Part shown: in pieces, positions 7,585 to 26,761 of the stretch | How the letters are laid out: each line of letters starts with the position of its first letter | How positions within the stretch are numbered: position 1 is the stretch's first letter | IMG/VR virus record: IMGVR_UViG_3300028840_001102 | Coordinates: 1-48,250 of that record | Strand: one strand, 5' to 3' | DNA length: 48,250 bases | DNA from: a virus | Program-made: the position numbers and the translations under genes | The notes under the pieces: generated by a model | What the model saw: only the letters and a program-made list of their open reading frames with translations | Database searches by the model: none | Told to the model about the DNA's origin: nothing

Positions 7585-9156
7585 ATGGACATGGAGACGA
7601 AAGATACTACAGAAGGGCACGGGCAAACGTTTGGACGGCGTTTGTCCGTGCTCATTAGAGCCAGGGCTGGGATGCCCTGGATTGTGACACCAGAAGAGCA
7701 CCGGGCGGAAGAACTGATGACTAAGGTGGCAGGTTGGAGTGCCTTGCCGTTTGCAGTATATGCATGGAGGGCGTCCACCGGGCTCTATACTATAGAGGAC
7801 AAAACGAAAGTATTGGAAGGCACGCAGCCATTGCAGAATGCATTACGGTATATCGGGGACTCGACCGTCAGGGCAATCTATATAATGGAAGACGCGTCGG
7901 CGTGGCTTAAGGCTGACCCTGTAAGTCAGCGGATATTGAAAGACGAGATTGAAGCACAGTCCAGGCTACCAGAGGTCAATTATCGTGTAGTAGTTTTCTT
8001 GGATCAACAGACTGCACCGGATATTCCCGGTGTCGTGCCTTTGGAAATGCCCCTGCCTAATAGAAAAGAGTTGAATGGCGTTGTCGGCTCTGTGATAAAC
8101 CAGGTGAACCGGCAAGCCAGCAACGGGGATTGCGTTAGGGTAAGGCAGGCTGAAAGGGAACAGATCGTTGACGCATTGACAGGCCTACAGATGGAACAGG
8201 CTTTAGTAGCGTGTAGTACAAGCCTGGCCGAATGCAAGCGATTAGATCCGGCAAGGCTTGTCCAGACGAAAAAGCACTTGATTGGACAGGCCGGTGCAGT
8301 CCAGTGGATTGAACCTGACGAGCGCGGCCTTGATGGGATTGGCGGGCTGCGCAACCTGAAGGCGTGGCTTACCAAACGGAGGGCAGCGTTTACTAGGCAG
8401 GCGAGAGAGTGGGGTTTGCCTAGACCTAGGGCATTACTGGCAACAGGTGTGCCCGGGACCGGTAAGTCCCTGACTGCCAAGTGTATTGCAACGGCTTGGC
8501 AAATGCCGTTGCTAAGGTTTGATGTCGGGGCGGCGTTTGCCAAATGGGTTGGCGAAAGCGAGCGCGGTGTTAGGTCTGCCCTACAGACCGCAAGCGCAAT
8601 AGCACCTTGTGTCCTATGGGTAGATGAAATCGAGAAAGCCTTTGCAGGTGCCTCGTCCGGTGAGTCGGATGCAGGCACGGCGGCAAGGGTCTTTGGGCAA
8701 TTCCTAACGTGGCTTCAGGAGAACGAGGATCCGGTCTTTCTGATTGCAACCGCAAACGATGTTACACTATTGCCGCCTGAGTTCTTGCGGGCTGGCAGGT
8801 TTGACGCTACCTTCTGGGCTGATGTGCCCAATGAAAGCGCCAGGTGTGAAATCAGTGCGGTTCTAGTCAACAAATACGAGGTCTGCAAAGGTATAGACCT
8901 GGACCGGTTTGCCGAGGCAGCAGACGGGTACACAGGTGCCGAAATGGAACAAGCCCTAATATCCGCCATGTATGCGGCGTTTGATGAAGGCGAGCAGGAG
9001 GTTTCTACTGACGAGGCTATCCGGGGCTTACGTGGTGTCAATAGAGTAATTGACGGTTGGGGGTCTAAACTGAAAGCACTGCGCGGTTGGGCACAAAAGG
9101 CGGCACTGCCGGCGGACATTGCGGAAGTCCAAGAACAAAGGCAAAGGAGGTTCTGA
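7585..9156 (+). CDS. AAA+ ATPase of the Ycf46 type
   Basis: A 523-aa protein. The N-terminal ~240 residues (LIRARAGMPWIVTPEEHRAE; VYAWRASTGL) match the pattern of Ycf46-type ATPases, a degenerate NTPase-like domain. The C-terminal AAA+ module has Walker A GVPGTGKS (288-295), Walker B CVLWVDEIE (D347, E348), sensor 1 ATAND (N391) and an arginine-finger region LRAGRFD (~401-407), so all catalytic elements are present. The family is known from cyanobacteria and plastids and its biochemistry is poorly known. Three genes follow in tight overlap (9156 and the DUF1257-DUF2997 fusion at 9353), an association also seen in bacteria. The start has AGGAG eight bases upstream. Confident as AAA+, fairly confident as Ycf46-like. 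Confidence 0.85.
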   Translation: MDMETKDTTEGHGQTFGRRLSVLIRARAGMPWIVTPEEHRAEELMTKVAGWSALPFAVYAWRASTGLYTIEDKTKVLEGTQPLQNALRYIGDSTVRAIYIMEDASAWLKADPVSQRILKDEIEAQSRLPEVNYRVVVFLDQQTAPDIPGVVPLEMPLPNRKELNGVVGSVINQVNRQASNGDCVRVRQAEREQIVDALTGLQMEQALVACSTSLAECKRLDPARLVQTKKHLIGQAGAVQWIEPDERGLDGIGGLRNLKAWLTKRRAAFTRQAREWGLPRPRALLATGVPGTGKSLTAKCIATAWQMPLLRFDVGAAFAKWVGESERGVRSALQTASAIAPCVLWVDEIEKAFAGASSGESDAGTAARVFGQFLTWLQENEDPVFLIATANDVTLLPPEFLRAGRFDATFWADVPNESARCEISAVLVNKYEVCKGIDLDRFAEAADGYTGAEMEQALISAMYAAFDEGEQEVSTDEAIRGLRGVNRVIDGWGSKLKALRGWAQKAALPADIAEVQEQRQRRF

Positions 9157-10129: not shown

Positions 10130-10134
10130 GCTTT

Positions 10135-10208
10135 GGGGTAGTGGTCTAGTTTGGGAAGACGTCGGCTTGTCAAGCCGGAGAACGCGGGTTCAAGTCCCGT
10201 CTACCCCG
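10135..10208 (+). tRNA. tRNA-Asp (GTC)
   Basis: A canonical cloverleaf. Acceptor is GGGGTAG/CTACCCC, D arm GTCT/AGAC, anticodon stem TCGGC/GCCGG with loop TTGTCAA (anticodon GTC), variable loop AGAAC, and T arm GCGGG-TTCAAGT-CCCGT. The discriminator is G73, as in tRNA-Asp. CCA is not encoded. Confidence 0.95.
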
Positions 10209-10254
10209 TTTCAACGTGTTGATAGTGTTGTCTTTAATCAAAGGGAGTTGAGTC

Positions 10255-17531: not shown

Positions 17532-17780
17532 ATGATAGATTGGCCGACTGACCCACCGCAGCAAACACAAAATGCTCACAATGTCCAGGTAGCATGCAAG
17601 GTTATTGACGCCCTAACAAAAGATAACAATAAACAACGGGAGACATTAGAGGCCATTAGAAACATTAGTGGCGAAGCATATAACACCCTTGCTACCAATC
17701 AAGCGCTTGCCCGCATTCGGAGATTATGCTCGGCAATATTGGACACCGATACTGCCGAAAGTGCCCATCATAAGGAGTAG
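17532..17780 (+). CDS. Small helical protein, unknown
   Basis: An 82-aa helical protein (VACKVIDALTKDNNKQRETL) starting at ATG 17532 after GGGAGAGTG. It ends 7 bp before the replication initiator-like gene, so the two are probably co-expressed. No domain recognised. Confidence 0.55.
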   Translation: MIDWPTDPPQQTQNAHNVQVACKVIDALTKDNNKQRETLEAIRNISGEAYNTLATNQALARIRRLCSAILDTDTAESAHHKE

Positions 17781-17787
17781 GTCTCCA

Positions 17788-18897
17788 ATGCCTACGAGTA
17801 GCATCCGCTACATTCAGCTTAGTACAAGCTTCTGGCGTGAGCCTGATATCCGCAAATGGTCTAGCGATGCCAAGGTTTTATACCTATATCTAATCGGCAA
17901 CAATGACGTGCACGGGGCAACTGGTATAGGCCACATAGACCTAAGCGCAATGTGTTTTGATCTCAATATGGAACCCAAAAACCTGGCGAAAGCAAAGGCG
18001 GAAATTGGAGACAAAGTCCAGTGGTTTTCAGGTGATTACTACTGGGTCAAGGCCAGGAGCGCTCACGCCTGTTACAAGATTAACGGGGACCATTCGGACA
18101 AACTTGCACGTGCCGCGGCTAATTATGTTAGCGGTTTACGGTCAGATATTCTGGACGCATATGTCAAGAGATACCCCGATATCCTGGCATATGCCGAGCG
18201 TCAGAAGGCGGCCACGGACGCACAACAGATACCCCATACAAAGGGTATAGATACCCCATCGATAGGGCATGCAAGGGGTATCGATACACCATCGATAGAC
18301 CATCGATACCCTATCGATACCCTATCGACTACATCTTGTATGCCGGACACCAAACCGAAGGAGGCCACGCAAGATAAGCGAGATACCCCATCGATACCCC
18401 ATCGATACCCTATGCATACCCCATCTCTTCGTGAGAGCGATTCCGACTCCGAGTCCGAATCCGAGTCCGAGTCCGACAATGGGGAGAAGAACCCCCCTTC
18501 CCCCCACGGCACCGAGGCACCACCCAGCAGACCAATCAAGACCGAATTGCAGCAAGCCTTCCCGGACCCAATCATGGCTCAAGCAGTACAAGAATTGTTG
18601 GCCAAATATGCCTCTACTATCAGAGCCGACGATAGCCTAGACAAGGCACTCTGGCCAATCAAACACATATTGCGTTCAGGCACCACCAACATAACAGACC
18701 TCCACACCGCAGTAGAAAGGGCAGCCCAAACATACCACGGACAAGACGAAACCTTTAATCCAACCGCGCACAATTTCTTCAGGGACAACCGCTGGCGTTT
18801 CTACCTGAGTAAAGGTTGGAAACCACCCATACCAAAGGAAGACAAACGCATAGCCAAGATAAGAGAAGCCGCAGAAAAAGCAAGGGAGAGCTTCTGA
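17788..18897 (+). CDS. Replication initiator-like protein carrying the origin iterons in its gene
   Basis: A 369-aa protein. ATG 17788, with AAGGAG upstream, is chosen over an earlier in-frame start inside the previous gene. The N-terminal ~115 aa (SIRYIQLSTSFWREPDIRKW; AKVLYLYLIGNND) look like the winged-helix N-domain of phage replisome-organiser or O-type proteins. The central part (~145-215) is an 11-residue repeat (GIDTPSI...) created by the 11-bp DNA iterons. It is followed by a Ser-Glu/Asp run (SDSDSESESESESD), a Pro linker, and a C-terminal helical domain (~255-369; ALWPIKHILRSGTTNITDLH, NFFRDNRWRFYLSKGW) like those that contact helicase or loader. The layout parallels lambda O, whose gene also contains the origin. 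Confidence in an initiator role is good; family not certain. Confidence 0.75.
   Translation: MPTSSIRYIQLSTSFWREPDIRKWSSDAKVLYLYLIGNNDVHGATGIGHIDLSAMCFDLNMEPKNLAKAKAEIGDKVQWFSGDYYWVKARSAHACYKINGDHSDKLARAAANYVSGLRSDILDAYVKRYPDILAYAERQKAATDAQQIPHTKGIDTPSIGHARGIDTPSIDHRYPIDTLSTTSCMPDTKPKEATQDKRDTPSIPHRYPMHTPSLRESDSDSESESESESDNGEKNPPSPHGTEAPPSRPIKTELQQAFPDPIMAQAVQELLAKYASTIRADDSLDKALWPIKHILRSGTTNITDLHTAVERAAQTYHGQDETFNPTAHNFFRDNRWRFYLSKGWKPPIPKEDKRIAKIREAAEKARESF
18228..18326 (+). repeat. Origin iteron array 1: 11-bp units, consensus GATACCCYATC
   Basis: Units begin every 11 bp. Good copies start at 18250, 18283, 18294, 18305 and 18316, plus a copy at 18228. Units at 18261 (GATAGGGCATG) and 18272 (CAAGGGGTATC) carry the motif partly inverted or altered; 18239 is degenerate. 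Junctions create ATCGAT. Eleven bp is about one helical turn, so sites face one side of the helix. The array lies inside the initiator-like gene. Confidence 0.85.
18382..18425 (+). repeat. Origin iteron array 2: four 11-bp units
   Basis: Units start at 18382, 18393, 18404 and 18415: GATACCCCATC twice, GATACCCTATG and CATACCCCATC. The distance from the first copy of array 1 is 154 bp, exactly 14 units, so the helical phase is kept across the 55-bp gap between the arrays. Confidence 0.85.
18439..18477 (+). repeat. Hexamer repeat encoding a Ser-Glu/Asp run
   Basis: GA(C/G/A)TCC-type hexamers are repeated about six times and encode DSDSESESESESD right after the second iteron array. A C-rich stretch (near 18491-18510) follows. 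It may be a simple slippage repeat, a strand-asymmetric unwinding or spacer element, or just an acidic linker. Confidence 0.75.
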
Positions 18898-18898
18898 C

Positions 18899-19834
18899 AT
18901 GAACCATACTGAAATCGCAGACATCTTTGATTATATGGAGGCACTCGGTTGGAAAGTGTGGGATAACGCCAAGCCACCTTGGGTTAGAGTCCTGCAAGGC
19001 ATCCAATCCTATCAAGCGGCCAAAGATATCCTATACCAAATGTCACTCGAAGAACGGTGGCAAACAAAAACACCAGGCCTAGGCGTATTCCAAAAAACCG
19101 CATTCCGCTATATCTCGGCAAACAGGGAATATATACCAAAGCCACCGGGATGTTCTATTTGTAGCAATACCGATAATGGAGCAGTTAATACCTCGCTTGG
19201 TTTAGTCTTTGTCCCCTGCGTTAGAAACCCAGAACCACCGCCATGGAGAGTCGTCGGCACCGAAGGCGATGACATACGAATCTTTACCGTGCCTTGCACG
19301 TGCGAAGCCGGAGAATACTATGCCCAAATGACCAAAGGAAATCAAACACATACACAACGATTTAGAACCGACGCGCACGAATGGCTCGAACAACACGAAG
19401 CGGAGGCGTATGAATATTGGGCAAACAAAATCAACCGGTTGAAGGCAAATCGATGTCTAACGGAGGCAGATATCAACCGCATTAAATGCGCAGAACCCAC
19501 CCTCGCAGCCGTGCTGAGGGACTTCGCTTCAAGCCTCACAGCACCGCCGGCCGAAACCCGAAAAAGCGATTCTGACGCACACGAGCCCCGAGGGGTAGGC
19601 AAACCATACCGTAGCCTATCCGTGTGCCTTGACGGTGCCTCCCAGGCCGTAGAATCGTATCGCATGACGCCACGCTCCGCGGCAGACGCGTCGCAAACGC
19701 AGACGCCACAGACCAGACGCGAACGATCCGCAGACGAACAGGCACGCCGAGAAATCACAGACGCTTCCGACTTTGAACTCTGGAAGGCCGAACAAATCAA
19801 ACGATTGGAGGAATCACACCATGGTGAGTTCTGA
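18899..19834 (+). CDS. Replication-module protein with Cys cluster (possible helicase-loader role)
   Basis: A 311-aa protein starting one base after the initiator's stop region. Residues ~80-130 hold GCSICSNTDNG, then FVPCVRN and later FTVPCTCEAGEYYAQ, a zinc-binding cluster. The N-terminal ~75 aa (MEALGWKVWDNAKPPWVRVL; YQAAKDILYQMSLEERWQTK) look helical, like small loader or primase-associated domains. The C-terminal third is a polar linker and an acidic helix. In lambda-type modules the gene after the initiator encodes the helicase loader. No Walker motif is present, so any loader would be of the P type. Role is inferred from position. Confidence 0.55.
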   Translation: MNHTEIADIFDYMEALGWKVWDNAKPPWVRVLQGIQSYQAAKDILYQMSLEERWQTKTPGLGVFQKTAFRYISANREYIPKPPGCSICSNTDNGAVNTSLGLVFVPCVRNPEPPPWRVVGTEGDDIRIFTVPCTCEAGEYYAQMTKGNQTHTQRFRTDAHEWLEQHEAEAYEYWANKINRLKANRCLTEADINRIKCAEPTLAAVLRDFASSLTAPPAETRKSDSDAHEPRGVGKPYRSLSVCLDGASQAVESYRMTPRSAADASQTQTPQTRRERSADEQARREITDASDFELWKAEQIKRLEESHHGEF

Positions 19835-20198
19835 GATATTGTGCCGGCTTATTGATGCAGTAGATAGACTCACTGCAAGTTTAAATCGTGCCGTAGATAC
19901 CTATGGAACGTCTGGCAAGGAACACAAAGGGCCGCATCAAAGATATCAAAAAGAAACGTACCAAATGCCGACACCGCAGAAACGGGATTTGACAAATCTG
20001 CTACAACGCATTCTCGATATTCACACGTGCGATACCGAGCTTTTGTTAGGCAAATGCGTTTGGTGTGGAGCAGACAAACACGACTTTGACGATCAACCCA
20101 ATGCTATGCATAATCACGCCTTGGATTGCCCGGTCGTTATCGCAAAACGATTGATGGGCAAATATCAATGCCTTGAGGATAACGCAGAAAACACTTGA
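19821..20198 (+). CDS. Small Cys/His Zn-binding protein
   Basis: A 125-aa protein. ATG 19821 is preferred because GGAGG lies ten bases upstream; an earlier in-frame ATG lies within the previous gene without a ribosome site. The C-terminal half has CVWCGADKH and then HNHALDCPVV, a plausible C2-HC zinc finger. The N-terminus is helical (ILCRLIDAVDRLTASLNRAV). Overlaps both neighbours slightly, as in a coupled replication operon. Confidence 0.6.
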   Translation: MVSSEILCRLIDAVDRLTASLNRAVDTYGTSGKEHKGPHQRYQKETYQMPTPQKRDLTNLLQRILDIHTCDTELLLGKCVWCGADKHDFDDQPNAMHNHALDCPVVIAKRLMGKYQCLEDNAENT

Positions 20199-20223
20199 CA
20201 CCGAGTATCATTTTGGGTAACCT
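20195..20223 (+). promoter_or_regulatory. Weak candidate sigma70-type promoter
   Basis: TTGACA (20195-20200), a 17-bp spacer and TAACCT (20218-20223) lie just before the ParB-like gene. The first ten bases TTGACACCGA are identical to those of the better promoter at 26758. The -10 is poor. Confidence 0.3.
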
Positions 20224-20257
20224 AACCTGGCTCAAAGGAAACAAAAAGGATATCTGT

Positions 20258-20821
20258 ATGGTTGTCCCAAACACTGTAGCAGATTTACACCCATGGCAGG
20301 GAAACCCGCGGGAAATCGATGAATCCGAACTCAGCTCACTACATCGGAGTATGGGAGAGATGGGGGACCTCTCCGGGATCGTGTTTAACCTCCGGACACG
20401 GAGATTGGTTACCGGACACCAGAGACGAAAGAAGCTTCCGGATGAACTTCCGGTACAGGGTTACACCGAGGTCCATGATGATACCGGGACCGTAGGAACG
20501 GCTTGGGTAGAGGATCCGAATACCGGGGCAAGGTGGGCGATACGGTATGTTGATTGGGGCGAGCAGATGGAATTGCTTGCAAATCTAACGGCAAACAATC
20601 CAGGTATTCAGGGGCACTTTACGCCGGCTGTTGGGCCTATGCTTGAGACATTGAAGACTGATCTCCCTGAGTTGTCTGATAGTTTGCGATTGGCCGCTAT
20701 TGATATTCCAGTTGATCCGGCCTCGTTTGTTCCCCAAGATGGCAGTACGCAACCTTCCTTGGACCACAAAAATCCTGTCAAATGCCCTGAGTGCGGACAT
20801 GAGTTCTCGCCGTCAACTTAA
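20258..20821 (+). CDS. ParB-like N-terminal domain protein with C-terminal zinc ribbon
   Basis: A 187-aa protein from ATG 20258 (a TTG at 20195 would add 21 aa). Residues ~10-75 follow the ParB/sulfiredoxin-like pattern: LHPWQGNPREIDESELSSLH, then GIVFNLRTRRLVTGHQRRKK, with the GHQR nucleotide-binding motif. The C-terminal end carries CPECGHEF, one half of a zinc ribbon. ParB-fold proteins use CTP or act as nucleases or kinases in different families; which applies is not visible. The gene overlaps the following Mom-family gene by 23 bases, so the two are co-translated. In phage Mu the zinc protein Com also overlaps and activates mom, a suggestive parallel. Confidence 0.8.
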   Translation: MVVPNTVADLHPWQGNPREIDESELSSLHRSMGEMGDLSGIVFNLRTRRLVTGHQRRKKLPDELPVQGYTEVHDDTGTVGTAWVEDPNTGARWAIRYVDWGEQMELLANLTANNPGIQGHFTPAVGPMLETLKTDLPELSDSLRLAAIDIPVDPASFVPQDGSTQPSLDHKNPVKCPECGHEFSPST

Positions 20822-21428
20822 ACTCGGTTGGTGTACTTACACCGCGGCCAAATACGCTGTTGAGCATTGGCATTATTCCCGGACAATGCCAGCGTTCAAA
20901 GTTGCCAAGATTGGTGTTTGGGAAGATGAAACCTTTATTGGTGCTGTATTGTTTGGTATGGGTGCTACTAAACATTTGGGTTCGCCATATGGGTTAAATT
21001 GCTTCCAAGTATGCGAACTTGTACGAGTTGCCCTTACAACCCATAATGCGCCAGTGACTCGTATAATCCGAATAGCGATTAGTATGGTCAAAAAACGATA
21101 CCGTGGCTTAAGGCTAATTGTGTCCTTTGCTGACCCAGAGCAAGGGCATATCGGCACGATATATCAAGCAGGTAATTGGATTTATAGTGGCAGCGTTGCA
21201 TCCGGAGATTGGGTAAAAGTGCATAACAAGACATATCATCCTAGGGGCATTGTGCAGAAATATGGTCATAGGGGGATAGCCTGGCTTCGTGCAAATGTTG
21301 ACCCTAATGCAAAGGTTGTCATGAGGATCCCTAAGTATCGGTACTTGATGCCGCTTGACAAGGGCATGGCTCGAGTTATAGCATCATTGCGTCAGCCATA
21401 CCCCAAACAATCTGCGGCCGTGGTGTAA
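20799..21428 (+). CDS. mom: Mom-family DNA modification enzyme
   Basis: A 209-aa protein that resembles the Mom family (GNAT-like fold), which in phage Mu converts adenine in DNA to a carbamoylmethyl-type derivative and protects against restriction. Recognisable blocks are AVEHWHYSRTMP, GVWEDETFIGAVLFG, CELVRVALTTHNAPVTRIIR, RLIVSFADPEQGH and TIYQAGNWIYSG. Length is close to Mu Mom. The ATG at 20799 lies inside the end of the ParB-like gene; a longer upstream frame is a shadow of that gene. Its 3' end overlaps a tRNA-like gene. Together with two methyltransferase loci nearby it forms a DNA-protection region. Confidence 0.85.
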   Translation: MSSRRQLKLGWCTYTAAKYAVEHWHYSRTMPAFKVAKIGVWEDETFIGAVLFGMGATKHLGSPYGLNCFQVCELVRVALTTHNAPVTRIIRIAISMVKKRYRGLRLIVSFADPEQGHIGTIYQAGNWIYSGSVASGDWVKVHNKTYHPRGIVQKYGHRGIAWLRANVDPNAKVVMRIPKYRYLMPLDKGMARVIASLRQPYPKQSAAVV

Positions 21429-21485
21429 TGGCAACACACCTGGTACCCAACCGGGATATGGCGGTTCAACTCCGACCCGGCCGCT
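21414..21485 (+). tRNA. tRNA-Gly-like gene (CCC) with non-canonical loop and bulged T stem
   Basis: Acceptor GCGGCCG/CGGCCGC is perfect, D arm GTGT/ACAC with GG and A21, anticodon stem CCTGG/CCGGG, loop TACCCAA, and discriminator T as in bacterial tRNA-Gly. Two oddities: position 33 is A instead of the near-universal U, and the T stem GGCGG/CCGaCC pairs fully only if an A is bulged. The first 15 bases overlap the 3' end of mom. It may be a degenerate or specialised tRNA. Confidence 0.7.
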
Positions 21486-21531
21486 CTCCCCTGGATATGA
21501 CGGAGTGTTACATCAATAGAGGTGATAGGAA

Positions 21532-22077
21532 ATGAAAAGAAAACTTACATTAGGGCAAGAGCTTAGAAAAGTCCGTTGCAGGAAGCTAAGGCTTAGAAAA
21601 ATGGAGACCATTGCTAGGTTGCGAGTGCAAGGTTATAGTTGGGCACAGACAGCGGAAATGATGGGGTACACAAATCCCCAATCACTCAATGCTGCCTGCA
21701 ATGGACCTTGGAGAGACGATTGGAGGGAAATATACGACAGGGCTGTTGAGATGCATTGGAACGGTTTGGAGGCTGAAGCCGGATTGAAGCAACAGTCCTT
21801 ATTGAGATCGGAGGACGAAAACATTGCACAAAGGGCCGCCCATAGCCTTCTAGCTCACTCGGCCAAGCTTCGTAAACAATTTCACGGCATTACTAAAAGG
21901 GTAGAACATGGCGGTCAAATAGATGTTGGGATATCTGCCACTAACAGCAAGGGTGTTTCGTTATCTGAGTATGCGCAATGGATTAGGGAACACCGCATGA
22001 ATGGACAGGCTACCAATACCAATGCTAGACCTCAACATGACCGAATCACAGACGACACCGCCAATACCCCAAAGTGA
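21532..22077 (+). CDS. terS: Terminase small subunit
   Basis: A 181-aa protein starting at ATG 21532 directly before the large terminase gene. Its N-terminal third is an HTH: METIARLRVQGYSWAQTAEM, then MMGYTNPQSLNAAC, as in DNA-recognition domains of small terminases. A central helical part (NGLEAEAGLKQQSLLRSEDE; RAAHSLLAHSAKLRKQFHGI) fits the oligomerisation core. The disordered tail ends in Asn/Thr/Asp-rich sequence that overlaps TerL. Role: binds phage DNA and starts packaging. Position makes this call fairly safe. Confidence 0.8.
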   Translation: MKRKLTLGQELRKVRCRKLRLRKMETIARLRVQGYSWAQTAEMMGYTNPQSLNAACNGPWRDDWREIYDRAVEMHWNGLEAEAGLKQQSLLRSEDENIAQRAAHSLLAHSAKLRKQFHGITKRVEHGGQIDVGISATNSKGVSLSEYAQWIREHRMNGQATNTNARPQHDRITDDTANTPK

Positions 22078-23425
22078 TTGGGTTGCTATACGTGCCGATG
22101 GACAGGCCTTCCCGGCATGCTGGATTGAGACAGTACTTGGGATCCGGCTTACAGACGATCAAAGGCTTTGCGCAGACGATGTGCCCGTATATCAATACAA
22201 TCATTGGCGAGCGGCCCATGCCACGGGGAAAACGTTTCTCTTAGCTTGTATGGCGTTGCAATGGGGTACCTGTTATGACGACGCCCAAATTATTACTACT
22301 GCGGCAGTAGGCAGGCAAGTCCGGCGTCAGCTTTGGGGTTTGTTGCCCAATCTATATACTAGAGCAAGGGGGCGTGGTTACCCAATCCCTGGCGAGATGC
22401 AAACCACGACATGGGCGATATCGGACATTGCGAGTGCTGCCGGCTTTAGCACTAACAACGTTGACGCTTTCACCGGTGATCATGGCCCACACGTATTGTA
22501 TTTGCTTGATGAAGGCCAGGGCATTGAACAGGAGATCGTCGGTGGTGTGATGACTTCAATGCAGAGCCCTGAGTCCAGGTGTATATTTGCGGGGAATCCG
22601 GTTAGGGCAGAAGGGGCGTTTTATGATGCGTGGAAATCTGACCTTTGGCATTGTAGAAAGTTGCCGGCCGAGACTCACCCTAATGTCTTGTTCAATCAAG
22701 AAATCATCCCCGGTGCTATTACAAGGCCATGGATTGCGGACATGGCCAAACAGTATGGAGAAACTAGCCCTTGGTTTATAGGGCGTGTCAATGGGGAGTT
22801 TCCTGAAAACGCAAGCTTTGGGTTGTTCAACGGAGGCCACCTGGCAAGCGCGGTCAATCGGTATGATATCAATGCTCCTAGGCGTGGTGATAGGATTATG
22901 GGTATTGATGTTGCAGGACAAGGGGATGACCTAACAGTTTGGGGCATTAGAGATGACGTGCAGCTACGGCATATGGAATCCGAACAGATAATGGACCCTT
23001 TGTCCGTAGCTGTTAGGGGCAGAACGATTGCCAAAGACTGGGGTGTTGAACCGCATAACATTAGAGTTGATATGACTGGTGAAGGGCACGGGACAGTTGC
23101 CAAGTTTAGGGAAATGGGATTAGATGTCATTGGTGTGCACTTTGGCGAAAGCGCAGAAGATTCTAATCAGTATGCAAACCGTAGAGCCGAAATGTATAAG
23201 GGCGCGGCTGCTGCCATTGACCCCGCCAAAGGCGGTTCGTTTGCATTGCCGGACCACACTATGTTGATTGAAGACTGCCGGTCCATTAGTTACAAGTTTG
23301 ACAAGCATGGCCGTTACCAAATTGAATCTAAGGAGGCAATTAAAAAGCGCACAGGCAGGAGTCCTGACTTTTCCGACATGCTGGCATTGTTGTTTTATCC
23401 CAAACGCGAGGTTTGGGTGTACTAG
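22001..23425 (+). CDS. terL: Terminase large subunit (ATPase/nuclease)
   Basis: A 474-aa protein. The ATPase has AAHATGKT (71-78), a deviant Walker A, and Walker B VLYLLDEGQ (D170, E171). The C-terminal RNase-H-like nuclease shows GIDVAGQGDD (D303), RVDMTGEGHG (D357) and PDFSDMLAL (D456, D459). Length is typical. ATG 22001 is given, but ATGs at 22022 (other frame) and 22037 (same frame) lie nearby, so the true start could be 22037; either overlaps terS. Together with portal it drives headful or site-specific packaging. Confidence 0.95.
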   Translation: MDRLPIPMLDLNMTESQTTPPIPQSDWVAIRADGQAFPACWIETVLGIRLTDDQRLCADDVPVYQYNHWRAAHATGKTFLLACMALQWGTCYDDAQIITTAAVGRQVRRQLWGLLPNLYTRARGRGYPIPGEMQTTTWAISDIASAAGFSTNNVDAFTGDHGPHVLYLLDEGQGIEQEIVGGVMTSMQSPESRCIFAGNPVRAEGAFYDAWKSDLWHCRKLPAETHPNVLFNQEIIPGAITRPWIADMAKQYGETSPWFIGRVNGEFPENASFGLFNGGHLASAVNRYDINAPRRGDRIMGIDVAGQGDDLTVWGIRDDVQLRHMESEQIMDPLSVAVRGRTIAKDWGVEPHNIRVDMTGEGHGTVAKFREMGLDVIGVHFGESAEDSNQYANRRAEMYKGAAAAIDPAKGGSFALPDHTMLIEDCRSISYKFDKHGRYQIESKEAIKKRTGRSPDFSDMLALLFYPKREVWVY

Positions 23426-23431
23426 GAGCGC

Positions 23432-24220
23432 GTGTTGAAACCTATATACAAGACAGACATTGCGGAATTGTGGCAGGGACACGTTATAGAGGTTGCCCGG
23501 TATTTGCCCGAGAAGTCTATACATTGCCTCATTACTAGCCCGCCTTATTGGGGCCTGCGCAGCTACGGGACTGAACCGCAGATTTGGGGCGGTCGGCCTG
23601 ACTGTGAGCATGTTTGGGGGAAGACCTTACCTAGGTCTCACGAAATCCACCATGGTAGTGGTGCTAAGGATCACGACGACTCAGTACGGACCAGCGGCAA
23701 TTCAGGGCATTTCTGCCAGTATCAAGATTGTCGGGCTTGGCGTGGCGAGCTTGGTCTAGAGCCGACACCTAACTTGTATATTGAGCATTTGGTTTCGTGC
23801 TTTGATGCATTGCGGCCGGCATTGCGTGACGATGCAACGTGTTGGGTTAACATAGGTGATTCACACTGTAGCAATAAAGGCGGCAACCGAAACGGCTTGA
23901 CATCAAGCACATTGCCGGGGGCAAACGCAGAAGCAAAACGTAGTGAATCTATAGGCACTAAATCTTTGCGGCCGGCATCAAGTACTTACGGGCTTGCCCC
24001 TGGGAACGTATGTTTGATCCCGCATAGGTTCGCCATTGCAATGCAAGAACGGGGTTGGATTCTCAGGTCTGCTAATATATGGGCTAAAGGTGTGAGTTTC
24101 TGCTCTACTTATTCGGGTTCTGTTATGCCTGATAGTGTAGCAGGGTGGAGGTGGGAGAGGCATCGCATTAGGCCATTCAAGCCATATACAGGAAGGCAGA
24201 CCGGAATTGAATGCCCTTAG
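23432..24220 (+). pseudogene. DNA methyltransferase, N-terminal part (motif IV); frame broken near 24180-24210
   Basis: A 262-aa frame starting at GTG 23432 with TAGGAG upstream. Motif IV is LITSPPYWG (34-41), the catalytic loop of beta-class DNA amino-methyltransferases; the SPPY form is frequent in N4-cytosine enzymes but does not decide the base. It then has CWVNIGDSHCS and GNVCLIPHRFAIAMQERGWI, the usual middle blocks, and stops after VAGWRWERHR. The missing AdoMet-binding motif I is in the next frame (24207-25136), so this is one methyltransferase split by a +1 frame change. It could be a mutation, a sequencing error, programmed frameshifting or a two-chain enzyme. Confidence 0.8.
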
Positions 24221-25136
24221 GGAAACCAACAATGATGCGGACCGGCGGGCTGTTATGTCATGTGCTAATCCGTTGAAATCAAATCTAATAGAATGCCCCG
24301 GTTGTGACAAGTGCAATCCCAATGATGGGTATATTCTGCGCAAGGGCTCATGGCGTCCGACATCTGCTTACGAGATGTTGTTTCAGTTCGCAAATACAGG
24401 GACTTACTATGGGGACGGGGAAGGGGTGAGGGAAGATACGGGCGAGTCAATTCGGAGGGGCACCGGAAAGCCATTAGGCAGTACACTAGGGGAGGGCAGA
24501 AATGACCGGGACAGATTCTGTTCAGATATTGCCACATCAGGCCGCAACCTCCGCAACGTCTGGACGATCAACCCGAAGCCCTATCCGAAGGCCCATTTTG
24601 CCACCTTCCCGCCTGCACTAGTAGAGCCGTGCATCAAATCAAGTACTAGTGATAAGGGTGTTTGCTCAAAGTGCGGGGCACCGTGGGCGAGGGTTCTCAA
24701 ACGCCGCAGGACCTATGATCATACGACGACTAAAGCCGGCAAGAGCAAGGACGGACCCTATAGCTCTCAGACAGGTAATGGTGTTGGAACGCACGATGTC
24801 AGGCATGGTGTATATACCAACAATCAAACCCACGGCTGGCGTCCTACCTGCCCCTGTCAGTACGAAGCAAACGCAGCCGCTGCATTTATGGCATCAGGCA
24901 TTACAATTGACAAACGAGTTAAACCTGTCGTATTGGATCCTGTGCCTGCTACGGTGCTTGATCCCTTCTGCGGTTCGGGTACAACAGGCAAGGTTGCTAT
25001 TCAGTTAGAGCGTCACTTTGTTGGTATTGATTTGCAAGGTGACTATTGCATAGAGCATGCTGTCCCTAGGTTGCACAAAGCAGATACCGGTATTGATGAA
25101 GCTGAAGCAATAGAAGGGCAGTTGTCTTTATTCTAG
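24207..25136 (+). pseudogene. DNA methyltransferase, C-terminal part (motif I)
   Basis: A 309-aa frame that overlaps the previous stop by 14 bases; possible starts are TTG 24207 and ATG 24255, neither with a clear ribosome site. It contains GYILRKGSWRPTSAYEMLFQ, NVWTINPKPYPKAHFATFPP (118-136) and motif I VLDPFCGSGTTG (~250-261), followed by the FVGIDLQGDYC segment. These are exactly the blocks missing from the frame at 23432. Two Cys pairs (CPGC..C; CSKC) are additional. A functional enzyme would need joining of both frames or association of two chains. Confidence 0.8.
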
Positions 25137-25145
25137 GAGTGCGAG

Positions 25146-25367
25146 ATGTGCGATTGCGCAAAAGATGCGGACAACAACCCATTGGTAGCGTGCCATAGAT
25201 GTGAGCGGTATTTCATTCATGGTGAGGAAGTAACCAAGGAACATTTCATGAAAGCATATGAAGACTATCGCAGATACCACATAGCCCAAATCCCGGCGAG
25301 GTCAAACCGTCTGCCTGTATCTTGGCGGTGGTGTGTTGCTACGCAACAGAGGTTGTCTTCGCTATGA
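25146..25367 (+). CDS. Small Cys-rich Zn-binding protein
   Basis: A 73-aa protein starting at ATG 25146 with CTAGGAG upstream. MCDCAKDADNN and ACHRCERYF give two Cys pairs. It ends in the start codon of the next methyltransferase (ATGA overlap), suggesting coupling. A zinc-finger accessory to the methyltransferase or a regulator are both possible. Confidence 0.6.
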   Translation: MCDCAKDADNNPLVACHRCERYFIHGEEVTKEHFMKAYEDYRRYHIAQIPARSNRLPVSWRWCVATQQRLSSL

Positions 25368-26761
25368 CAGCACTATCACCTGATTGGGTTTCAGACGATG
25401 GCTTGATTCAACTGTACTGCGGAGACAGTGCGGATATCTTGCCGCAGTTGCCGACGCATAGTGTAGCGTCTGTCATTACGGATCCGCCGGCCGGGATATC
25501 ATTTATGGGGAAAGAGTGGGACGGTTCTAAGGGCGGCCGGGACAAGTGGATTGATTGGCTTGCTGGGATTCTCAAAGAGTCATTGCGGATATGCAAGCCA
25601 GGCGGCACGCTTGCATGTTGGTCTTTGCCCCGTACTAGTCACTGGACTGGCATATCTGTAGAGTCGGCAGGTTGGGATATCTTTGATGTCTTTCAGTACG
25701 TATTTGGGACGGGGTTTCCCAAGTCATTAGACATCAGCAAGGCGATTGACAAGGCCGCGGGCGCGGAGCGGGAGGTCGTGGGATCCAATCCACATGCAAG
25801 GCCGAACAGCGACGATCGGGGCGAGGGCGTGTACGGTGGTGGCAACGGAAGCGATCACTCGACAGACATCACCGCCCCTGCCACCGCCCCCGCCAAACTT
25901 TGGGACGGTTACGGTACAGCCCTAAAGCCGGCTGCTGAGTTCTGGTGGCTTGCCTATGCGCCTAGGGAAGGGTCGTATGCCGAGAATGCGCAGAAGCACG
26001 GCGTGGCGGGGCTGAATGTGGACGGGTGTAGGGTGCCGATATCGTCATGCGATGTCGAGACTATTGCCAATATGGGTGGTTATGGAAAAGCCGGATGGCA
26101 GCGTGAGCCGACTGGTATATATAATGCGAACGTCGCTGAACATTTGATGCCTACCAGAGACGCTAAGCCACACACTTCCGGCCGCTGGCCTGCCAATCTG
26201 AGTCACGACGGCAGCGAGGAGGTCGTGGGGATGTTTCCGGATAGTAAGTGTGTAGGAACGTATAAGAACGAGCAAGGACCAGGTGCCAAGTTTTTTGGGG
26301 GTCAATCCGACAAACGACGACTTCAGCAATGGAATAGGCACGACAACGGCTCTGCTGCCCGCTTCTTTCAGGAATGCCCACGGTTTATGTACGGGTCAAA
26401 ACCCAGCAGAAGTGAACGGAACGAAAACCTAGAAGATAAGCCGGATTGCGAAAAACCGGGCAGACTGCAAATGCGTCAGGACGGAGGACTTGATGGGCAT
26501 ATTACAGCTCCGGCACCCAATAATCATCCCACGGTTAAGTCGCTATCTCTAATGCGGTATCTATGCAAGCTTACCAAGCCACCGGAAGGCGGTATCGTAT
26601 TGGACCCATTTATGGGGTCAGGCACGACGGTGATTGCTGCGTGGTTTGAGCATAGGGCTGCAATCGGTATCGAGGCTGATGACGAGTATTTCCGGCTGGC
26701 GCAAGCCAGGGTCGAGGGCGCCATCCGGCGGGAAGCGAAAGATATGCCACTTTTTAGTTGA
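25364..26761 (+). CDS. Site-specific DNA methyltransferase (beta class)
   Basis: A 465-aa protein starting at ATG 25364. Motif IV VITDPPAGISF (~37-47) has the DPP core but Ala in place of the usual aromatic, a variant seen in phage methyltransferases of this kind (DPPAGISFMGKEWD). The central ~200 aa form a long insertion with NVDGCRVP and GRWPANLSHDG, likely target recognition. Motif I VLDPFMGSGTT (~412-422) is near the C-terminus, so the order is beta class. It is intact, unlike the split enzyme upstream. Probable role: methylate phage DNA against host restriction. The recognition site cannot be read from sequence. Confidence 0.9.
   Translation: MTALSPDWVSDDGLIQLYCGDSADILPQLPTHSVASVITDPPAGISFMGKEWDGSKGGRDKWIDWLAGILKESLRICKPGGTLACWSLPRTSHWTGISVESAGWDIFDVFQYVFGTGFPKSLDISKAIDKAAGAEREVVGSNPHARPNSDDRGEGVYGGGNGSDHSTDITAPATAPAKLWDGYGTALKPAAEFWWLAYAPREGSYAENAQKHGVAGLNVDGCRVPISSCDVETIANMGGYGKAGWQREPTGIYNANVAEHLMPTRDAKPHTSGRWPANLSHDGSEEVVGMFPDSKCVGTYKNEQGPGAKFFGGQSDKRRLQQWNRHDNGSAARFFQECPRFMYGSKPSRSERNENLEDKPDCEKPGRLQMRQDGGLDGHITAPAPNNHPTVKSLSLMRYLCKLTKPPEGGIVLDPFMGSGTTVIAAWFEHRAAIGIEADDEYFRLAQARVEGAIRREAKDMPLFS

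What the first reader, a model, noticed from the sequence alone, without database searches (positions are those of the whole stretch)
18228..18425. Origin of replication built from phased 11-bp iterons inside the initiator's own coding sequence
Consensus GATACCCYATC repeats every 11 bp in two arrays (18228-18326 and 18382-18425). They are exactly in phase with each other (154 bp = 14 x 11), one per helical turn, with ATCGAT at each junction. Eleven is not a multiple of three, so the same DNA is read in three frames in turn and forces an 11-residue protein repeat (GIDTPSI...). The gene must satisfy both DNA and protein constraints. Lambda O has iterons in its gene too, but this unit, number and phasing are not ones I recognise.
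Basis: partly seen in the sequence, partly recalled or inferred. Interest (0 to 1): 0.85.

Follow-up and report, generated by a model that had tools for sequence, protein, structure and literature searches.

The report
Phage replication origin inside initiator gene
A bacterial virus keeps the likely starting point of its DNA replication, thirteen 11-letter binding sites, inside the gene for the protein that probably recognises them; the arrangement is known in other viruses and plasmids, but this site family proved to be widespread and, in the papers we could search, undescribed.

Summary
The array is real. Thirteen units lie on one exact 11-bp grid (18228-18326 and 18382-18425, gap 5 x 11 bp), inside the open frame 17788-18897. 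Two corrections: three units are inverted, and ATCGAT occurs at 7 of 11 junctions. Keeping the protein fixed, random codons never gave as many units (0/5000).

The gene is a divergent phage replisome organizer: winged-helix N-domain, disordered linker encoded by the array, helical C-terminus. The unit, generalised to GATA-N3-TATC, hit 93 viral stretches; in 79 of 100 pattern-selected loci (redundant) the array lies inside a homologous gene, in all three frames, sometimes inverted, occasionally non-coding. Selection is therefore on DNA, and the array is most likely the origin bound by the gene's own product.

This kind is known: Tuc2009, TP901-1 and SPP1 organizers, lambda O, and RepA_N plasmid pSK41. 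New here are the GATA-N3-TATC site class, the longest array seen (median of relatives 3 units), and a second element: a 5/6-bp repeat tract next to the array (here 18437-18476) in 41 of 70 non-redundant relatives versus 2 tracts in 540 kb of control DNA. No binding, replication or origin mapping was tested, and the window lacks an A+T-rich unwinding element beside the array.

The parts
17788..18897 (+). Replisome organizer (replication initiator) gene, 369 aa, ATG start, AAGGAG at 17772-17777
   Evidence: translation; PHROG DnaD-like helicase loader / replisome organizer at 4e-4 and 3e-3; profile of iteron-bearing organizers, built without it, finds it at 7.8e-9; hhalign 97%
17788..18225 (+). 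Part coding for the N-terminal winged-helix domain (aa 1-146), presumed iteron-binding domain
   Evidence: AlphaFold pLDDT mostly above 80; nearest solved folds RepA_N initiator N-domains 5kbj/4pt7/4pta/4pql, probability 0.87-1.00, E 0.016 or worse
18228..18326 (.). Iteron array 1: nine 11-bp units, six forward and three inverted (18239, 18261, 18272)
18327..18381 (.). 55-bp spacer, exactly five unit lengths, no recognisable unit
18382..18425 (+). Iteron array 2: four forward 11-bp units in register with array 1
18437..18476 (+). Six-bp repeat tract (GACTCC/GAGTCC, encodes SDSESESESE), 11 bp after the last iteron; candidate second origin element
   Evidence: TRF 6 bp x 6.5 copies; corresponding tracts in 41 of 70 relatives; exceeds synonymous null in the window at p 0.023
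18226..18537 (+). Part coding for the disordered linker (aa 147-250), which holds the iterons and the 6-bp tract
   Evidence: AlphaFold pLDDT mostly below 50 from residue 160 to 248
18538..18735 (+). Part coding for a C-terminal helical region (aa 251-316), presumed partner-binding part
   Evidence: four helices at moderate confidence; no family match

Best explanation
The array is the phage's replication origin, lying in the disordered-linker part of the gene for its own initiator. The initiator's N-terminal winged-helix domain binds the 11-bp GATA-N3-TATC units, probably as dimers because each unit is a near-palindrome of half-sites, and builds a nucleoprotein complex over up to 18 grid positions. 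Neighbouring DNA then opens, and the C-terminal part together with phage or host loaders brings in the replicative helicase. Shown here by computation: the array, its excess over the codon constraint, the homology of the gene, and conservation of the DNA unit across frames, strands and phages. Inferred: binding, opening, helicase loading. The 6-bp tract next to the array is a candidate second element (opening or single-strand loading).
For: Nine near-perfect units against 0.68 expected under a fixed protein, 0/5000. Homology to replisome organizers. Pattern GATACNNTATCGATACNNTATC gives 93 viral stretches; of 100 pattern loci 79 have the array inside a homologous ORF and 10 within 300 bp after it, frames 54/22/3. 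It also lies in annotated 'replisome organizer DnaA-like' of Geobacillus virus E2 and 'DnaD domain protein' of an Exiguobacterium phage. Some units are inverted relative to the gene and a few arrays are outside it. 14 of 20 non-redundant organizers not chosen by the exact pattern also carry a significant array. The array encodes a disordered linker between folded parts, as in pSK41 Rep, where the ori-encoded linker is dispensable (PMC5703833). Tuc2009 and TP901-1 organizers bind repeats within their own genes that serve as ori (PMC8965321).
Against: No experiment. Only one other contig of this phage exists and it is identical here, so no close-relative test. GC skew shows only a local dip at 18-20 kb and no lasting sign change. 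No A+T-rich element lies next to the array; the DNA just downstream is among the most stable in the window. The protein has no Pfam match and only weak PHROG scores. No helicase or loader was recognised next to the gene.
Confidence: 0.85

Rival explanations
1. The array is an operator: the wHTH protein binds inside its own gene to block transcription, and replication starts elsewhere.
For: wHTH proteins are often repressors; weak structural matches to MarR/GntR regulators follow the RepA_N matches.
Against: The array lies 440 bp into the gene, in the linker-coding part, in nearly all relatives; best-matched annotations and folds are initiators; in Tuc2009 and TP901-1 the equivalent region is ori. 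Autoregulation could coexist with an origin.
Confidence: 0.07
2. The repeat is kept for the protein: an 11-residue peptide repeat with a structural or binding role, and the DNA repeat is a by-product or a recent tandem duplication.
For: A peptide repeat does exist; arrays can grow by slippage.
Against: Synonymous resampling with the protein fixed never reproduces the DNA repeat; relatives carry the unit in all three frames, giving different peptides, on either strand and occasionally non-coding; the segment is predicted disordered.
Confidence: 0.04
3. The array is a recombination, packaging or partition site that happens to sit in the initiator gene.
For: A ParB-like protein is encoded nearby at 20195-20821, and iterons can serve partition.
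Against: In relatives the array follows the organizer gene and not ParB-like genes; Geobacillus virus E2 has it in the gene directly before a DnaB-like helicase gene.
Confidence: 0.04

Closest known systems
Lactococcal phage Tuc2009 Rep (ORF16) and TP901-1 ORF13 with their intragenic ori
   Same: Initiator binds repeats within its own gene that act as origin (PMC8965321). In Tuc2009 the repeats CGCAACCAAAT also recur every 11 bp and are followed by a 5-bp repeat tract GGATA/GGTTA.
   Different: Different unit sequence; no GATA-N3-TATC units in either; TP901-1 repeats are spaced 15 bp; fewer units.
RepA_N plasmid initiators (pSK41, pTZ2162)
   Same: wHTH N-domain, origin repeats centrally within rep, linker encoded by the ori, separate C-domain (PMC5703833); nearest solved folds to the window's N-domain.
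   Different: No Pfam RepA_N match; different unit and fewer boxes (four); plasmids, not a phage.
Bacillus phage SPP1 gp38 / oriL
   Same: Replisome organizer binding direct repeats inside its own gene 38 (PMC6316719).
   Different: SPP1 has a second origin (oriR) and an A+T-rich unwinding element; none seen here. SPP1's repeats were not compared (record not held under the accession tried).
Phage lambda O / ori
   Same: Iterons inside the initiator gene (established knowledge).
   Different: Four 18-bp iterons next to an A+T-rich region (established knowledge); unrelated unit; 13 units here.
Geobacillus virus E2 ORF39 and other GATA-N3-TATC organizers found here
   Same: Same DNA unit and grid in a homologous gene, plus a short-repeat tract.
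   Different: Typically 2-5 in-phase units (median 3) against 11-13 here; palindromic TATC rather than YATC, cores vary.

Membership tests
Phage replisome organizer with intragenic origin (Tuc2009/TP901-1/SPP1 kind) | Gene product homologous to phage replisome organizers | tested here: met
   HMM of 12 organizers excluding the window: E 7.8e-9; hhalign 97%; PHROG 1701/6251
Phage replisome organizer with intragenic origin (Tuc2009/TP901-1/SPP1 kind) | Iterons within the gene, between the DNA-binding domain and the C-terminal part | tested here: met
Phage replisome organizer with intragenic origin (Tuc2009/TP901-1/SPP1 kind) | Protein binds the iterons and the region acts as origin | not testable with these tools
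   needs gel shift, footprinting and a plasmid replication assay
Phage replisome organizer with intragenic origin (Tuc2009/TP901-1/SPP1 kind) | Adjacent A+T-rich unwinding element (documented for SPP1; not treated here as defining for the whole kind) | tested here: inconclusive
   No A+T-rich stretch directly beside the array; the segment from 18480 is at the 4th percentile for ease of melting; the segment from 18120, about 50-100 bp upstream, is at the 96th
RepA_N initiators | Pfam PF06970 N-domain | tested here: not met
   no match for the window protein or any of 58 relatives at E 0.01
RepA_N initiators | RepA_N-like fold of the N-domain | tested here: inconclusive
   top PDB matches are RepA_N N-domains, probability 0.87-1.00, but E 0.016 or worse and TM about 0.4-0.5
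Lambda O type | Four 18-bp iterons and homology to O | tested here: not met
   11-bp units, 13 of them; no O-like family match for the window protein
DnaA-trio / DnaD recognition element kind of single-strand element | A (or T on the other strand) every third base next to double-strand binding sites | tested here: not met
   relatives' tracts: mean longest run 12.1 triplets against about 5 elsewhere in the gene, but the window tract has a longest run of 3

The most novel reading that the evidence does not exclude
Phage initiators of this superfamily share a two-part intragenic origin: 11-bp iterons for the winged-helix domain, followed by a 5/6-bp repeat tract that works as DNA (strand opening or loading of the initiator's or helicase loader's C-terminal part on single strands), analogous to DnaA boxes plus DnaA-trios/DnaD recognition element at bacterial oriC. 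The window is a G+C-rich, 13-iteron version.
Probability: 0.3. Interest if true: 0.75.

Novelty: new variant of a known kind. Interest (0 to 1): 0.5.

Why it matters
It supplies a searchable DNA signature for replication origins in a large, mostly uncharacterised set of phages, where both initiator and origin can be read from one gene. It is a clean natural case of one stretch of DNA under both coding and binding-site selection, testable by synonymous recoding. If the short-repeat tract proves functional, it would suggest that phage initiators of the DnaD/RepA_N kind use a double-strand plus single-strand origin logic like that of bacterial oriC.

Tried and rejected
Close relatives of this phage: none apart from one identical contig, using the initiator, the next gene and the terminase as queries, so a within-lineage test of spacing versus codons was impossible. 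BLASTN of the region against phages: nothing. Literature search for the unit's letters: only chance matches. GC skew: local dip only. A+T-rich unwinding element at the tract: not there. TnnT/DnaA-trio pattern in the window's own tract: not met. Iteron units in TP901-1, Tuc2009 and A118: not GATA-N3-TATC. The 'long lag' column is invalid (masking letters matched each other at lag 10) and is not used; the z value for A is inflated by zero variances and only the counts and run lengths are used. Profile search of A3 against PDB sequences found nothing. SPP1 could not be compared under the accession tried, and the r1t paper is not held.

Full report
What is there. The gene at 17788-18897 (ATG, AAGGAG upstream) encodes 369 aa. 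Thirteen 11-bp units matching GATACCCYATC lie on a single 11-bp grid from 18228 to 18425, nine and then four, separated by 55 bp. Three units of the first group are inverted. The unit is a near-palindrome, GATA-N3-TATC; in the window the asymmetric CCC core and the Y give it direction. Only two further units with at most one mismatch exist in the other 48 kb. With the protein held fixed and codons drawn from the phage's own usage, 5000 trials gave a mean of 0.68 and a maximum of 4 units against 9 observed, so the peptide does not force the DNA repeat. Rare codons (CGA, TCG, CCC) are used where the unit needs them. As single strands the array folds far better than shuffles (z -5.1), as expected from inverted units.

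What the gene is. PHROG matches are weak (DnaD-like helicase loader 4e-4, replisome organizer 3e-3) and Pfam gives none. A profile built from twelve iteron-bearing organizers of other phages, without the window, finds it at 7.8e-9, and profile comparison gives 97% over residues 7-126. AlphaFold predicts a confident N-domain (residues about 10-146, winged helix plus helices), a disordered stretch from about 160 to 248, and a moderately confident helical C-terminal region 251-316. The iterons and the 6-bp tract encode this disordered stretch. The closest solved folds of the N-domain are RepA_N plasmid initiators, including a Rep-DNA complex (5kbj, 4pt7, 4pta, 4pql; probability 0.87-1.00, E values 0.016 to 0.23); this is suggestive only.

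Relatives. The exact 22-mer GATACCCYATCGATACCCYATC gave 22 viral stretches and four in bacterial or archaeal genomes (Sediminibacillus, Cohnella, a Gallionellaceae MAG, a Mollicutes MAG). The generalised GATACNNTATCGATACNNTATC gave 93 viral stretches. Of the 100 loci selected by these patterns (redundant; some are the same phage in two collections), 79 carry the array inside an ORF matched by the organizer profile, 10 within 300 bp after it, 10 have no organizer ORF in the stretch held, and one is far away. Frames are 54, 22 and 3, and several arrays are inverted relative to the gene. The array usually starts at codon 110-160 of the ORF. Among 20 non-redundant organizers not chosen by the exact pattern, 14 have a significant array in a codon-shuffle test; four or five of those 20 had been found by array-DNA similarity and one is the window itself, so this is only partly independent. 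Annotated members include 'replisome organizer DnaA-like' in Geobacillus virus E2, directly before a DnaB-like helicase gene, and a 'DnaD domain protein' in an Exiguobacterium phage. The window has the most in-phase units of 70 organizers (11 with at most two half-site mismatches; median 3).

A second element. In relatives the array is followed, usually within about 25 bp of the last unit, by a tract of 5/6-bp repeats: GAAAAA, GTTACT, AATACT, AACCAG, GATAAG and others. Strong tracts (24 of 30 matches) occur in 41 of 70 organizers against 2 in 540 kb of surrounding DNA. Named phages with other iterons have it too (Stenotrophomonas phages, Oenococcus phage Krappator27, Streptococcus phage Javan271, short-lag columns). 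In the window it is 18437-18476. Part of this is protein level (acidic or charged linkers), but 41 of 65 exceed a synonymous-codon null at p 0.05. In Tuc2009 the period is 5 bp inside coding sequence, and arrays not in the organizer frame (L004, L019, L056, L057) also have tracts. In relatives the tract has A at every third base in long runs (12.1 against about 5), reminiscent of the DnaA-trio/TnnT elements of B. subtilis oriC (PMC10201434), but the window's own G+C-rich tract does not. I therefore treat this as an open lead.

Mechanism. Best supported: the initiator's winged-helix domain binds the units; the array is ori; the C-terminal part recruits helicase-loading factors. This copies the organisation shown for Tuc2009 and TP901-1 (PMC8965321), SPP1 (PMC6316719) and pSK41, whose ori-encoded linker can be deleted from the protein (PMC5703833). 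Binding, opening and loading are inferred. Weak points: no experiment, no A+T-rich element beside the array, only a local GC-skew dip, and no close relatives.

Novelty. The kind is known. The GATA-N3-TATC class, its spread and the 13-unit mixed-orientation array were not found in the literature searched, which excludes most subscription papers, including (from memory) the 2006 review of phage replication modules by Weigel and Seitz, and the r1t paper. I rate it a new variant of a known kind.

Noticed in passing
18001-20000: The only two 1-kb blocks of the window with negative GC skew (-0.10, -0.07) cover the initiator gene and the next gene; elsewhere the skew is +0.04 to +0.24.
   Followed up: partly
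18899-19834: Gene directly after the initiator (311 aa) has no family match, although some relatives have a DnaB-like helicase or a loader at this place; an unrecognised replication partner is possible.
   Followed up: no
7585-9156: AAA ATPase with AAA_lid_3 (523 aa), PHROG 8638 of unknown function; not identified as a replicative helicase.
   Followed up: no
20195-26761: Cluster with a ParB-like protein, a Mom-like DNA modification protein and DNA methyltransferases; the phage may modify its DNA.
   Followed up: no
4133-4263: 63-bp tandem repeat, 2.1 copies, 98% match (21-residue repeat if coding).
   Followed up: no
7127-7215, 10134-10209, 21414-21486: tRNA-like genes: one with an unusual four-base anticodon call, tRNA-Asp, tRNA-Gly.
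   Followed up: no
L046, L053, L080, L082, L088, L095: In this group the organizer frame stops about 12 bp before the array, and the linker-like repeat continues in another frame; possible split gene or frameshift.
   Followed up: no
L201:886-1785 (Oenococcus phage Krappator27): An 11-bp repeat of different sequence (GAATCGTGGAC) with a GACAAT 6-bp tract on its upstream side: the two-part layout with another unit.
   Followed up: no
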